The notes below the pieces were generated by a model that was not told the DNA's origin, searched no databases, and was given only the letters and a program-made list of their open reading frames with translations. The position numbers and the translations under genes are program-made. A stretch of 54,753 bases of DNA from a bacterium BMS3Abin11 (GTDB lineage: Bacteria; Pseudomonadota; Gammaproteobacteria; BMS3Bbin11). Below, in pieces: positions 18 to 39,748 of the stretch. Position 1 is the stretch's first letter. The number at the start of each line of letters is the position of its first letter. The stretch lies in NCBI GenBank assembly GCA_002897635.1, contig BDTD01000009.1, positions 1-54,753 of the forward strand, given 5' to 3'.

Positions 18-88
18 TGTAGGTGCGAATTCATTCGCACAATGTGCATAAACATTGGCATCGCTGTGCGAATGAATTCGCACCTACA
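18..88. repeat. Family B palindromic repeat, copy 1
   Basis: A perfect 24-bp inverted repeat: arms 18-41 and 65-88 around a 23-nt centre. Each arm is itself nearly palindromic (GTGCGAAT-tc-ATTCGCAC), so one strand can form either one long hairpin or two small ones. A second, more diverged copy lies at 30385-30437. REP/BIME-like; no transposase is nearby. Confidence 0.85.
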
Positions 89-13769: not shown

Positions 13770-14162
13770 ATGACAAATGACAAAAACAAATACAGCAGTG
13801 ATAAATTAGACAAAATCGTTGCTGAGGCACATCGCAATCGCGATGAACGAGAGTTGGGCTATCGCGAAAAGGCATTGAAAATGTATCCCTGGATATGCGG
13901 CCGTTGTTCGCGTGAGTTTACACAGACCAATGTGCGGGAACTGACTGTTCACCACCGTAACCACGATCATGACGATAACCCTGAAGACGGCAGTAACTGG
14001 GAACTTTTATGTGTCTATTGTCATGATAATGAGCATTCTCGTTTGATTGATGGAGAATATGGAGAAGTCAGTTCGAGTACCGAGAAGACAAAAGAGGCCA
14101 CCAATAATCCATTTGTTGGACTTGCGGGGTTGATAAAAGAAAAAAAGAGAAAGGTTCCTTAG
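13770..14162 (+). CDS. yajD: HNH nuclease family protein YajD
   Basis: A 130-residue protein with a compact HNH (beta-beta-alpha metal) domain: CGRC at about residues 39-42, VHHRNHDHDDNP with the catalytic histidines, and CVYCHDNEH as the second zinc knuckle. It matches the YajD family in length and layout. I start at the ATG at 13770, preceded by AAAAAAGG, rather than at a GTG 21 bases upstream inside a hairpin. The last codons and stop lie in a repeat shared with the tatD 3' end. Confidence 0.85.
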   Translation: MTNDKNKYSSDKLDKIVAEAHRNRDERELGYREKALKMYPWICGRCSREFTQTNVRELTVHHRNHDHDDNPEDGSNWELLCVYCHDNEHSRLIDGEYGEVSSSTEKTKEATNNPFVGLAGLIKEKKRKVP

Positions 14163-14169
14163 GGATTAA
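14152..14169. repeat. Gene-tail repeat shared with tatD (copy 1)
   Basis: AGGTTCCTTAGGGATTAA here and AGGTTCCTTAAGGATTAA at 33559-33576 differ at one base. Each encodes the last Val-Pro of the gene and its stop codon. Downstream, purine-rich tracts of the AAAGATAAAGGATGAAG type follow in inverted orientation (about 14195-14236). Confidence 0.7.
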
Positions 14170-14244
14170 GAACTAAGGAGTATAACTTGGGTCTCTTTTT
14201 TTCCTTTATCTTTAATTCTTCATCTTTAGATCTTTAGTCTGGTT

Positions 14245-19270: not shown

Positions 19271-19431
19271 GGGAACCTCTGATTAATTCTGGACGAAGTA
19301 GATTGCGATCTAAAATATTCAGGTTTGAGGCGCAAATCGCACGTAATAGCTGGCTATTGCGAAGGTTTGCAACGAAAAAACTGGATATTTTAGGCGTAAG
19401 ATACGAGTTCATGAATTGATCAGAGGTTCCC
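19271..19431. mobile_element. Family A MITE-like element, copy 2
   Basis: A 161-bp element with 19-bp terminal inverted repeats (19271-19289 and 19413-19431, one mismatch; GGGAACCTCTGAT... ends). The core CGCACGTAATAGC-tg-GCTATTGCGAAG (about 19339-19364) recurs inverted in the copy at 32611-32768. It encodes no protein and sits between fabG and acpP, so it may separate their transcription. Confidence 0.75.
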
Positions 19432-22441: not shown

Positions 22442-22590
22442 TGTAGGAGTGTCGCCCGGCGCGATTGTTTTAAATAAAAGATAAATGACTCGGGACTAAG
22501 GATGAAAGATAAATAATATATCAACTTCATGTTCTTTCATCCTTAGTCAAGAGTCCTTTGTCTGATACATCACACCGAGCGGCACCTACA
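22442..22590. repeat. Family C palindromic repeat, copy 1
   Basis: Outer arms TGTAGGAGTGTCGCCCGGCG... (22442-22465) and ...ACCGAGCGGCACCTACA (22569-22590) enclose a second, perfect 16-bp inverted repeat (GACTAAGGATGAAAGA 22494-22509 with 22533-22548). The nested layout recurs at 39571-39748 and, without the inner repeat, at 49827-49907. It separates pabB from the transporter module. Confidence 0.8.
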
Positions 22591-32580: not shown

Positions 32581-32610
32581 CAGCTCTTTCTTTTCCATCA
32601 TTTATATAAA

Positions 32611-32768
32611 GGGCACCTCTATATATTCATGAATAATCATCTTGAATCCAAAATCAGCCATCTCTGCGTTAAGAATCTTCGCAATAGCTCGCTATTACGT
32701 GCGTTTCTTGCCTTGATCTGGCAGATTTTGAATCCAATCTGTATTATCCAGAATAAATAGAGGTGCCC
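32611..32768. mobile_element. Family A MITE-like element, copy 3
   Basis: A 158-bp element with 18-bp terminal inverted repeats (32611-32628 and 32751-32768, one mismatch; GGGCACCTCTATATATTC). The core CTTCGCAATAGC-tc-GCTATTACGTGCG (32678-32704) is the inverted counterpart of the core in copy 2. TAAA directly flanks both ends and may be a target duplication. It lies 18 bp upstream of the tatD start. Confidence 0.8.
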
Positions 32769-32786
32769 TAAAGTCATGGCTTAGCT

Positions 32787-33592: not shown

Positions 33593-34579
33593 TTAGTCTT
33601 TGGATTTTCCTCTTTTACCTTTGACCTTTCCTCTTTTTTTTACAGCCTCTACAGATGCCGATTTCTGCAGTTCATTTACCAGATACAAAGGACGTTGCTT
33701 GCTTTCCGAAAATATACGGCCCAGATATTCTCCTATGATGCCTAGTGCAAGTAACTGAACACCGCCAAGGAACAGGATTACGACCATCATGGTCGGATAG
33801 CCTGCAACGGGGTCACTGTAAATAAGAGTTTTGACGATAATCCAGAGACCGTAAAGGAATGCACCTGTAGCGGTGAGTAACCCTAAATAAGTAGATAGTT
33901 TCAATGGTGCTACAGTAAACGAAGTTATTCCTTCTATGGCTAAATTCCACAATGAAAGATAACTCCATTTTGATTCACCTGCATAGCGGGGATCACGATG
34001 ATATAAAACTGCAGTTTGTGAATAGCCGATCCAGGCAAACAGGCCTTTCATGTATCGGTTTCTTTCACGCAAGCTATTAAGGGCATTAACCGCTCTACGG
34101 CTCATCAACCGGAAGTCGCCGGTATCTTCTGGAATAGGTACGTGGCTAACACGTTTTATTACACGATAAAAAGCCTTAGATGTGAGTTTTCTTAGCGCCG
34201 ATTCACCTTTTCGTGAGATACGTTTAGCATAGACCACATCATAGCCAGCTTGCCATTTCTGGACTAATTCAGGAATGAGTTCTGGTGGGTCCTGCAGATC
34301 AGCATCAATAATTACTACGGCATCACCTTTGCAGTAATCAAGGCCGGCAGTCATGGCAATTTCTTTACCAAAATTCCTGCTTAGATCAACAATAGAAATT
34401 CTTGGATCATGCTCTTTTAGCTGGTTTAGAATATCGAGCGTAGAATCAGTGCTGCCATCATTGACGAAAAATATTTCAGAATCAAAAGACAGGGTATCCA
34501 GCACTGATGTGGTTCTCTGAAGAAAAGATTTAATAACTTCTTCTTCGTTAAAGACTGGTACTATTACAGACAGTAGCAC
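33593..34579 (-). CDS. GtrB/DPM1-like family 2 glycosyltransferase
   Basis: A 328-residue membrane-attached glycosyltransferase that probably moves a sugar from a nucleotide donor to undecaprenyl phosphate. The GT-A domain carries VNDGSTDST and the metal-binding DADLQDPPE, RKGESALR and the DTGDFRLM acceptor region. Two membrane helices lie at about residues 230-255 and 268-290, followed by a basic Lys/Arg-rich tail. The start is GTG at 34579 with TTAAGGAG upstream; that ribosome site lies inside a 36-bp inverted repeat of element E. Confidence 0.88.
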   Translation of the reverse strand: MLLSVIVPVFNEEEVIKSFLQRTTSVLDTLSFDSEIFFVNDGSTDSTLDILNQLKEHDPRISIVDLSRNFGKEIAMTAGLDYCKGDAVVIIDADLQDPPELIPELVQKWQAGYDVVYAKRISRKGESALRKLTSKAFYRVIKRVSHVPIPEDTGDFRLMSRRAVNALNSLRERNRYMKGLFAWIGYSQTAVLYHRDPRYAGESKWSYLSLWNLAIEGITSFTVAPLKLSTYLGLLTATGAFLYGLWIIVKTLIYSDPVAGYPTMMVVILFLGGVQLLALGIIGEYLGRIFSESKQRPLYLVNELQKSASVEAVKKRGKVKGKRGKSKD

Positions 34580-34850
34580 TAGTGCTCCTTAAACCTGATA
34601 ATGACGGGTTCAGTTAGCTTGTCAAGGCGCATGGCAAGGCGCGCCTCGCAGGCAATGGTTATTCCCTTGTCAAGAGGCGCAACGTAGTCCATGGGCGTTG
34701 ACAAGCTAACCCAAAGGGCGTCCCTGTGGCGTCTCGCTGCTTCGTTCCAGCGCTTGCCAAGGGATATAACCATTACCTTCGCACTGCGCCTTGCTGCGAA
34801 ACACCACAGGGACGCTGAACCCGTCATTATCAGGTTTAAGGAACACTAGT
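34578..34850. repeat. Element E: cloverleaf-like nested inverted repeat
   Basis: A 273-bp structure. Outer arms 34578-34613 and 34815-34850 are 36-bp inverted repeats with one mismatch. They enclose two hairpins without gaps: 34613-34710 (13-bp perfect ends GTTAGCTTGTCAA) and 34719-34814 (11-bp perfect ends CGTCCCTGTGG), joined by CCCAAAGGG. The two hairpin centres are diverged inverted copies of one another: GCAAGGCGC at 34634-34642 recurs inverted at 34786-34794, and AATGGTTATTCCCTTG at 34654-34669 at 34758-34774. It codes for nothing convincing. Confidence 0.85.
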
Positions 34851-34880: not shown

Positions 34881-36347
34881 ATGGATGCCTTACGTAGTTT
34901 TCTTCCCTGGAATAACACGCTTTATACTCTGCAGAATGCGCTGTACCTGGTATTGTTTGTGCTATTTATTGCAGCGATCATACCATTTTTTCTTCTTATA
35001 TTTTACGCACACCCCAGTGCCGATGATTTTTCTTATGCAGCCGCATATAGAACAGGCGGTCTCTGGGATCACGTAGTTGGCGAATACCTGACCTGGAAAG
35101 GGCGCTACTTTGCCATTTTTGTTACCGTTTTATTCCATCAAAGTGGGGACATGATCGTAAATTATAAATACCCTTTGTTACTTTTCCTTACATCGTTATT
35201 TTTTGCTCTCTATTACCTTGTCAGAACCGTATTCGAGGAAAAAGCTTCATTCTGGCAGACACTATTCTGTACCCTTGCATTTGGTGCATTTTACATCATC
35301 ACCTTACCCAGGGTGTCTGCGGCTCTGTACTGGGCTGATGGTGCATTTCAGTACCAGGTAGGCAGTATCTTTTTTCTCCTTTCGGTTGCATCATTACTCA
35401 GGCTTTATCGGGAAGTGAATAATCCATTTTTACCTACATTAACCTCTGTACTTTTTATTTTTGCAGCAATTGGTTCAACCGAAATTTTCATGATTTCACT
35501 ATCAACCCTGGTTGGTCTGATATTCCTGCATAAATTTTTCATCCTGAAGCAAAATCGTTTGCACTGGTCAGTTGTGCTGGCTGTGACCGTAAGCTCTTCA
35601 GCACTGCTGATCCTTGCCCCGGGAAATGCAATTCGGATGCGATTAGCATCTGAAAATAGTCAACAATTCTGGTTTTCTGTGAGCCGTTCAATCTATCACG
35701 GAGGGGAAGCCCTGATTAACTGGATTAGCCATCCCACATTGTGGTTTTTATCCATTGTTTTTATTCCTGTAGCTCTCTACCTTTTCTATATCAAAGGCAT
35801 TAGAAAGGATGCAAGCTGGACTCGGTTATTCCTGATCCTGGCATTGCTCATAGGACAGATATGGATAAGTTTCTTCGCAACCTGGTGGGCTGCGGCAAAT
35901 CCTGCTCCATGGAGAACGCTAAATGTCATTTATCTGGTGTTCCTCGTTGGCTGGTTCTTCCTTTTACTCGAATTTATTGCAGTCATGTCAAAAAATCGGA
36001 AGCTAGTTTATATAGACAGGTTATTTTCAATTCCAACTAGAGTGATGATGCTGACGTCAATAATTCTTCTCAGTGTATTACTTATCAGTAAAAGTCACGT
36101 GAGTGATGCATATATCGATCTATTTGGTGGTGGTGCAGCCGCATATGATAATTTTATGAAAGAACGATACGCGTCTATTGAACAACAAAAAATGAATGCC
36201 GGGCAAGAATCGGCAGCGGTAATTGTTGAAGCAATCAAAAATCCTCCACGCATTTTGGTATATACAGATATATCCAGAGATAAAAGCGACTGGCGCAATA
36301 GCGGTTATGCAAAATATTTTGGTTTGAGTTCTATCGTTACAAAGTAG
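34881..36347 (+). CDS. Polytopic membrane protein, DUF6056-like (GtrC-type candidate)
   Basis: A 488-residue protein with about ten hydrophobic segments and an early luminal HPSADDFSY motif, as in the DUF6056 family and O-antigen glucosyltransferases of the GT-C type. Such proteins use lipid-linked sugars on the outer face of the membrane. It is divergent from the GtrB-like gene, its likely partner; no GtrA-type flippase is nearby. I start at the ATG at 34881, since longer reading frames run into element E. Family assignment is moderate. Confidence 0.65.
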   Translation: MDALRSFLPWNNTLYTLQNALYLVLFVLFIAAIIPFFLLIFYAHPSADDFSYAAAYRTGGLWDHVVGEYLTWKGRYFAIFVTVLFHQSGDMIVNYKYPLLLFLTSLFFALYYLVRTVFEEKASFWQTLFCTLAFGAFYIITLPRVSAALYWADGAFQYQVGSIFFLLSVASLLRLYREVNNPFLPTLTSVLFIFAAIGSTEIFMISLSTLVGLIFLHKFFILKQNRLHWSVVLAVTVSSSALLILAPGNAIRMRLASENSQQFWFSVSRSIYHGGEALINWISHPTLWFLSIVFIPVALYLFYIKGIRKDASWTRLFLILALLIGQIWISFFATWWAAANPAPWRTLNVIYLVFLVGWFFLLLEFIAVMSKNRKLVYIDRLFSIPTRVMMLTSIILLSVLLISKSHVSDAYIDLFGGGAAAYDNFMKERYASIEQQKMNAGQESAAVIVEAIKNPPRILVYTDISRDKSDWRNSGYAKYFGLSSIVTK

Positions 36348-39570: not shown

Positions 39571-39748
39571 TGTAGAAGCGTCGCTCGGTGCGATTTTTTT
39601 TAGATAAAAGACGAAGGATTAAAGATAAAGGATGAAGGTTATAAGGGCAAGACGTACAATTGTTTCTCTTTTTCATCCTTGATTTTTTACCTTTAGTCCT
39701 TAATCCTTCGTCCTGCGTCGAAAAAACGCACCGAGCGACGCTCCTGCA
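39571..39748. repeat. Family C palindromic repeat, copy 2
   Basis: Outer arms TGTAGAAGCGTCGCTCGGTG... (39571-39599) and their inverted copy (39721-39748) share the core GCGTCGCTCGGTGCG. Inside is a perfect 13-bp inverted repeat GACGAAGGATTAA (39610-39622 with 39700-39712) and AAGGATGAA-type tracts. It lies between the aminotransferase 3' end and the start of the ATPase operon. Confidence 0.8.

What the first reader, a model, noticed from the sequence alone, without database searches (positions are those of the whole stretch)
34578..34850. Seamless 273-bp cloverleaf-like inverted-repeat element (element E)
A 36-bp outer inverted repeat encloses two hairpins of about 97 bp with no spare bases except CCCAAAGGG between them. 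The two hairpins have different arms but share inverted, diverged centres (GCAAGGCGC, AATGGTTAT...CCCTTG). Conserved loops with varied, still-complementary arms imply selection for structure. It could be a composite MITE, a structured RNA or a recombination substrate.
Basis: seen in the sequence. Interest (0 to 1): 0.75.

Follow-up and report, generated by a model that had tools for sequence, protein, structure and literature searches.

The report
Widespread cloverleaf-shaped jumping DNA element
This stretch is a 265-base jumping DNA element without genes that inserted between two bacterial genes, and it belongs to a very large family in which the folded clover-leaf shape and a small internal motif are conserved while the sequence of the ends is not, the reverse of ordinary mini-transposons.

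Summary
The structure is real (both strands fold 15-16 SD below shuffles) and it is a mobile element. Congeners G003 and G004 hold the empty site: AGTAGCAC-TA-AYACCTCC is interrupted here by 265 bp (34582-34846) with the TA duplicated. Two other insertions, one from a second family, show the same 2-bp duplication; the preferred target is CTAG. The genome holds 115 matching hairpins, including 17 complete two-hairpin elements and many one-hairpin ~160-bp relatives; two of these lie in the window.

Such hairpins occur in 126 of 369 species of the class and 102 of 398 of the phylum. Most elements are 265-271 bp. Terminal and hairpin arms differ between families but stay complementary (94% of cells paired; shuffles 58%), while mismatched internal-loop nucleotides (CAAGGC...AACGcnG) are nearly invariant. 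Ordinary MITEs conserve their ends instead.

Best reading: a non-autonomous TA-target element moved in trans by an unidentified enzyme that needs the folded arms and internal loops. No autonomous relative was found. IS630 transposases are absent from three copy-rich genomes, and a RAYT/TIRYT clade I tested is not its partner. No Rfam family or searched paper matches. Selection versus arm homogenisation by template switching is unresolved.

The parts
34582..34846 (.). Mobile element E proper (265 bp, no gene)
   Evidence: Absent at the orthologous site in G003 and G004, with a single TA there
34580..34581 (.). Left copy of the TA target duplication
34847..34848 (.). Right copy of the TA target duplication
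34578..34613 (.). Left arm of the outer stem (terminal inverted repeat plus TA and flank)
   Evidence: 15 of 32 outer-stem pairs have compensated changes among 12 copies
34815..34850 (.). Right arm of the outer stem
34613..34710 (+). Hairpin 1 (98 nt); internal-loop motif CAAGGCG 34635-34641 and CAACG 34680-34684
   Evidence: (model R1, 82.8 bits)
34710..34718 (.). Linker CCCAAAGGG, a mini-hairpin between the two long hairpins
   Evidence: A short C-rich/G-rich linker of this kind (5-8 nt between the scored hairpins) in 25 of 26 hairpin pairs examined
34718..34815 (-). Hairpin 2 (98 nt), inverted relative of hairpin 1; on the - strand CAAGGCG 34793-34787 and AACG 34746-34743
   Evidence: (84.4 bits)
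34585..34590 (-). AAGGAG at the element end, 5 nt before the GTG start of the glycosyltransferase gene; takes the place of the native GGAGG that the insertion displaced (role inferred)
   Evidence: Sequence; native GGAGG-TGTTA-GTG at the empty site of G003
33593..34579 (-). Neighbour: family 2 glycosyltransferase gene
   Evidence: Pfam PF00535, E 5e-36
34881..36347 (+). Neighbour: DUF6056 gene (listed ORF starts at 34791; likely start ATG 34881)
   Evidence: Pfam PF19528, E 7e-22
32610..32769 (-). Related one-hairpin element (~160 bp), hairpin 32641-32737
   Evidence: R1 57.1 bits, E 6e-13; terminal repeat; similar elements elsewhere in the genome
19271..19431 (+). Related one-hairpin element (~161 bp), hairpin 19303-19400
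   Evidence: R1 47.8 bits, E 2e-10; terminal repeat

Best explanation
Element E is a non-autonomous, MITE-like mobile element of a very large superfamily. Shown: it inserted at a TA with duplication of the TA, and its family has many dispersed copies. Inferred: an enzyme supplied in trans, not encoded by any element seen here, moves it and inserts it at TA, preferably in CTAG. The enzyme recognises the element in folded or extruded form (outer stem plus two hairpins) through the mismatched internal loops CAAGGC/AACGcnG that sit about 52-55 nt from each end, so the arms may change freely as long as they pair. The one-hairpin (~160 bp) and two-hairpin (~267 bp) forms are two sizes of the same device.
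For: Empty sites and TA duplication for E, for copy L003 and for a second family, L013. CTAG target: C before TA in 25/45, G after TA in 34/45, both in 22/45. Dispersed copies; 115 hairpins in the genome. Fixed geometry: core at offset 51-58 in most halves that carry it, hairpins about 88-110 nt and mostly 97-101, most elements 265-271 bp. Covariation: 33 of 90 pairs among 12 E-type copies, 0/500 shuffles as high, slid controls about 40% paired; 99 hairpins, 94.1% paired versus 58.3% shuffled. Key internal-loop positions 96-100% constant while arms use all pair types. 126/369 species of the class and 102/398 of the phylum.
Against: No enzyme identified. No autonomous element with matching ends seen in G000, G022 or G032. 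The IS630-type domain PF13358, the expected partner for TA/CTAG insertion, is absent from copy-rich G000, G022 and G032. Complementary arms could partly reflect template switching: an orthologous pair shows two double changes. Recognition of a fold is inferred from conservation only. The A4 alignment was fitted to the model, so its pair counts lean towards the structure.
Confidence: 0.6

Rival explanations
1. Ordinary MITEs derived from IS630/Tc1-mariner-type elements: the transposase recognises only the terminal repeats, and the inner hairpins are passengers.
For: TA duplication and CTAG preference match IS630-family behaviour: TA duplication is described in PMC2170065, and CTAG preference in the title of Tenzen & Ohtsubo 1991 in its reference list. 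Size, lack of genes and copy number are MITE-like.
Against: Terminal sequences vary widely between families while inner loop positions are nearly constant; a passenger interior should decay first. No PF13358 in G000, G022, G032. No IS with the same ends found.
Confidence: 0.25
2. The arms stay complementary because replication template switching homogenises them within each copy, not because the structure is selected (compatible with either mode of movement).
For: Template switching can create and maintain hairpins (PMC8794818). Orthologous copies E6 and L026 of G006 differ by two double, compensated changes at one site. Centre-deleted remnants show that the palindromes are unstable.
Against: Key internal-loop positions stay mismatched and constant in nearly all of 99 hairpins; unchecked homogenisation would turn them into perfect palindromes. 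Fixed spacing across families is not explained.
Confidence: 0.3
3. A single-strand (HUH/Y1) enzyme such as a RAYT or TIRYT moves the element by excising and inserting a folded single strand, as is proposed for REP sequences.
For: Structure-based recognition fits. Y1_Tnp (PF01797) is in 19/20 copy-rich versus 9/18 copy-free genomes (Fisher p 0.003). The A3 clade is in 81/126 element-bearing versus 83/243 other genomes. Neither test corrects for relatedness or genome size.
Against: 18 of 55 copy-rich genomes lack the A3 clade. Most A3 genes examined carry their own GGGGTCAGA-type terminal repeats, the TIRYT pattern of PMC3733652 and PMC6006769, and an element lies near only 2 of 30 of them. Both target sides show the CTAG preference and empty sites show a TA duplication, whereas IS200/IS605-type insertion makes none (established knowledge).
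Confidence: 0.12
4. The conserved unit is a functional RNA (useful to the host or selfish) spread by transposition.
For: Constant internal loops and covarying helices are typical of structured RNA.
Against: No Rfam match at E<=0.1. The two hairpins are inverted copies, so any one transcript shows the motif once and its complement once, which suits DNA better.
Confidence: 0.1

Closest known systems
TA-target bacterial MITEs (Correia/NEMIS, ERIC, RUP; RUP is linked to IS630-Spn1)
   Same: Small, terminal inverted repeats, TA at the termini, dispersed, stable stem-loops (PMC2229807).
   Different: Those are described as about 100-200 bp with one long stem-loop, and each family keeps its own terminal sequence. 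Here terminal sequences vary between families while inner hairpins with a near-invariant internal loop are kept across about 100 genera; no parent IS was found.
CIR repeats of Caulobacter and Brucella
   Same: Two long inverted-repeat arms joined by a linker (PMC2229807).
   Different: About 110 bp, no terminal inverted repeat, GANTC motif; element E is 265 bp, has an outer stem and contains no GANTC.
REP/REPIN sequences and RAYT/TIRYT transposases
   Same: Non-autonomous palindromes thought to be moved in trans by an enzyme that recognises a fold.
   Different: REPs are 20-40 bp with a GTAG or CGTC end (PMC3733652). E begins GTGC, ends ACAC, is far longer and duplicates TA; the Y1 genes tested are not flanked by it.
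MRSC-65-2 motif (mobile/repeat sequence candidates of PMC11109978)
   Same: Very abundant covarying stem in dozens of copies per genome, proposed to be selfish and possibly relevant as DNA.
   Different: Described as a single long stem with a UYCCGG repeat; ours has CAAGGC/AACGcnG loops and often two hairpins in an outer stem. That paper counts 250 such candidates; its supplement could not be read, so an unnamed one could overlap ours.

Membership tests
MITE (TA-target) | Short, gene-less, terminal inverted repeats, multi-copy | tested here: met
   265 bp, 36-nt inverted repeat, dispersed copies
MITE (TA-target) | Target-site duplication shown by an empty site | tested here: met
   TA duplicated at three insertions in two families
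MITE of an IS630/Tc1-mariner element | Autonomous relative with the same ends, or its DDE_3 transposase, in the host | tested here: not met
   No PF13358 in G000, G022, G032; no longer element with the same ends found. Either may have been lost, so origin from IS630 is not excluded.
REP/REPIN moved by RAYT | 20-40 bp palindrome with GTAG (or CGTC) end | tested here: not met
   265 bp; ends GTGC...ACAC
REP/REPIN moved by RAYT | Copies flank a Y1 transposase gene | tested here: not met
   1 of 30 PF01797 loci and 2 of 30 A3-clade loci have an element in about 1.5 kb either side; the two sets overlap
Rfam structured RNA | Match to a curated covariance model | tested here: not met
   None at gathering score or at E<=0.1
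Structured RNA | Transcribed and processed | not testable with these tools
   No transcriptome data
CIR repeat | GANTC motif, no outer inverted repeat | tested here: not met
   No GANTC in E; outer stem present
Integron attC site | R'/R'' core sites and an integron integrase | not tested
   Considered only as an analogy for recognition of a fold

The most novel reading that the evidence does not exclude
A phylum-wide class of mobile elements defined by a conserved DNA fold rather than by terminal sequence, moved by a still unknown enzyme that reads the mismatched internal loops of extruded or single-stranded hairpins and then inserts at TA.
Probability: 0.3. Interest if true: 0.85.

Novelty: new variant of a known kind. 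Interest (0 to 1): 0.7.

Why it matters
About a third of the sampled species of the class carry these hairpins, with 115 hits in this 2.67-Mb genome, yet no Rfam family and none of the papers I searched describes them. If fold and loops are what the enzyme reads, this is a bacterial mobile element whose specificity sits in structure while its ends drift freely, and its mobilising enzyme is still to be found. The elements also often sit at the very ends and starts of genes, supplying stop codons and possible ribosome-binding sites, so they bear on how operons evolve.

Tried and rejected
RAYT/TIRYT as partner: a co-occurrence signal exists but is not obligatory, and the flanks do not carry the elements. 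IS630 transposase as resident partner: absent from copy-rich G000, G022, G032. Autonomous copy with the same ends: none seen in G000, G022, G032. A 4-bp CTAG duplication: rejected, because the fourth bases differ left and right in several copies. Known RNA family: none. Plasmid or phage origin: few plasmid hits (Azotobacter, Pseudomonas, Halomonas, weakly Variovorax), no phage or E. coli hit for the queries tried; one viral contig carries a copy. A slip of mine: the single genome-contig scan used a pattern with one base too many, so most hosts remain unnamed. Searching the literature by sequence strings and by terms led to no description.

Full report
Observation. The outer 36-nt repeat, the two 98-nt hairpins and the CCCAAAGGG linker are present as described. 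Both strands fold 15-16 SD better than dinucleotide shuffles; with DNA parameters 14.7 SD.

Mobility. BLAST of the region in the genus found the two flanks contiguous in G003 and G004. The junctions read AGTAGCAC-TA-ACACCTCC and AGTAGCAC-TA-ATACCTCC, whereas the window reads AGTAGCAC-TA-[265 bp]-TA-GTACCTCC. Copy L003 (empty in G004 as AGCAT-TA-GTGCCC) and copy L013 of a different family (empty in G001, G002 and G005 as AATGCG-TA-...) give the same 2-bp duplication. L004 fits with base changes at the target; L007 is rearranged at its left junction. Over 45 copies from many genomes the bases outside the TA favour C on the left (25/45) and G on the right (34/45), both together in 22, so the target is CTAG-like. 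That is the preference reported for IS630 (title of Tenzen and Ohtsubo 1991, in the reference list of PMC2170065).

Copies. Including the window copy, the genome has five close copies (88-100% identity), three at about 70%, and truncated or centre-deleted remnants. At one site this genome keeps a 46-bp remnant where G003 keeps a longer, differently deleted copy, so the centre has been deleted more than once. One copy (L002) lies inside an element of another family. A covariance model of the hairpin (R1) finds 115 hairpins in the genome. My pairing script counts 17 complete two-hairpin elements, nearly all with 6 nt between the scored hairpins, and 81 hits with no scored partner; on contig C16 a weak extra hit chains two neighbouring structures, so the count is approximate by one. 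Of 20 unpartnered hits that I read, about half belong to 260-270-bp elements whose second hairpin does not score and about half to one-hairpin elements of 160-167 bp. Two one-hairpin elements lie in the window.

Anatomy across families. I examined 27 elements from about ten families. Nearly all fold into the same plan; the minimum-energy fold of the G006 copy opens differently. Most elements are 265-271 bp, with outliers from 251 to 343 bp. In halves that keep the core it starts 51-58 nt, mostly 52-55 nt, from the end of the stretch taken as the element; a few with truncated or extended ends deviate. Terminal sequences include TAGTGCTCC, TAGTGTCC, TACTAATCC, TAGTGTAGTG, TAGGGTCTG, TATTAACCC and TAGGGAAGC. 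In 99 hairpins, 31 of 32 helix pairs have compensated changes, 94.1% of cells pair against 58.3% after shuffling, and slid controls give about 40%. At the internal loop the first C, AGGC and AAC...G are 96-100% constant, and several of these positions have no pairing partner in the consensus structure. This is the reverse of a normal MITE, where the ends are constant. The 99-hairpin alignment was fitted to the model, so its pair counts lean towards the structure; the 12-copy alignment, which was not, gives 33 of 90 pairs compensated with 0 of 500 shuffles as high.

Range. 126 of 369 species genomes of the class (E<=1e-5) and 102 of 398 of the phylum (E<=1e-6) have matches. The E-values are rough because calibration is short, and I did not measure a false-positive rate on unrelated genomes; that most hits read here keep the loop motif and an inverted partner argues that they are real. 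Named carriers: Azotobacter chroococcum, a Pseudomonas aeruginosa PA83 plasmid, Halomonas sp. PA16-9 and a Sulfurimicrobium MAG.

Enzyme. No longer element with the same ends was seen in G000, G022 or G032. The IS630 domain is absent from these genomes. Y1 transposases are commoner in element-bearing genomes, but most genes of the tested clade are bounded by their own GGGGTCAGA-type repeats, and elements lie near only 2 of 30 loci. The enzyme is therefore unknown. A DDE-type insertion is inferred from the TA duplication only.

Selection or homogenisation. Orthologous copies E6 and L026 differ by two double compensated changes, two wobble changes and two pairs that break. Template switching can do that (PMC8794818). 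It would also erase the mismatched loops, which it has not, so the loops are best explained by selection, while the complementarity of the arms may owe something to both.

Gene boundaries. Here the element end places AAGGAG five nt before the GTG start of the glycosyltransferase gene, at the spacing at which the native GGAGG stands in G003. Of 38 long reading frames that run up to an element edge, 20 are in the frame in which the TA begins a codon; 17 of these stop at TAG made of the target TA and the first element base, and 3 at TAA one codon later. Against one third, p is 0.011; leaving out four second frames at ends that already have one gives 20 of 34 and p 0.002. A TTGACA-16-CATTAT promoter-like site points at the glycosyltransferase gene, but such sites are expected by chance.

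Verdict. It is a real and mobile element, part of a very large and apparently undescribed family. I file it as a new variant of the MITE kind, with a 0.3 chance that it is a distinct class recognised by structure.

Noticed in passing
Element edges in 45 copies; window 34577-34590: Elements often abut genes without spare bases: the edge gives incoming genes an in-frame TAG stop more often than frame chance, and the E end carries AAGGAG just before start codons of neighbouring genes in several copies.
   Followed up: partly
L005 (G000:C5:100597-100868) and L039 (G003:C114): At this shared site the left half of the element in G000 matches the young E type while the right half matches the old G003 copy, as if half the element had been overwritten by conversion.
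   Followed up: partly
window 18-88, 22479-22563, 39577-39742, 14132-14210: Other inverted repeats in the window (arms 19-31 nt) with no significant match to the hairpin model; nature unknown.
   Followed up: no
L050 (IMGVR_UViG_2811995032_000003): A copy of the superfamily lies within a few hundred bases of CRISPR-like repeats on a contig classed as viral.
   Followed up: no
G022 and G032 contig ends (e.g. L041, L042, L090, L100): Near-identical copies lie at contig ends and probably break these assemblies, which suggests recent spread and that copy numbers in draft genomes are underestimates.
   Followed up: no
L178-L207: About 240-aa Y1 proteins (MPRKPRF...), most of them bounded by GGGGTCAGA-type terminal repeats: a TIRYT-like clade found in 164 of 369 sampled species of the class.
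   Followed up: partly
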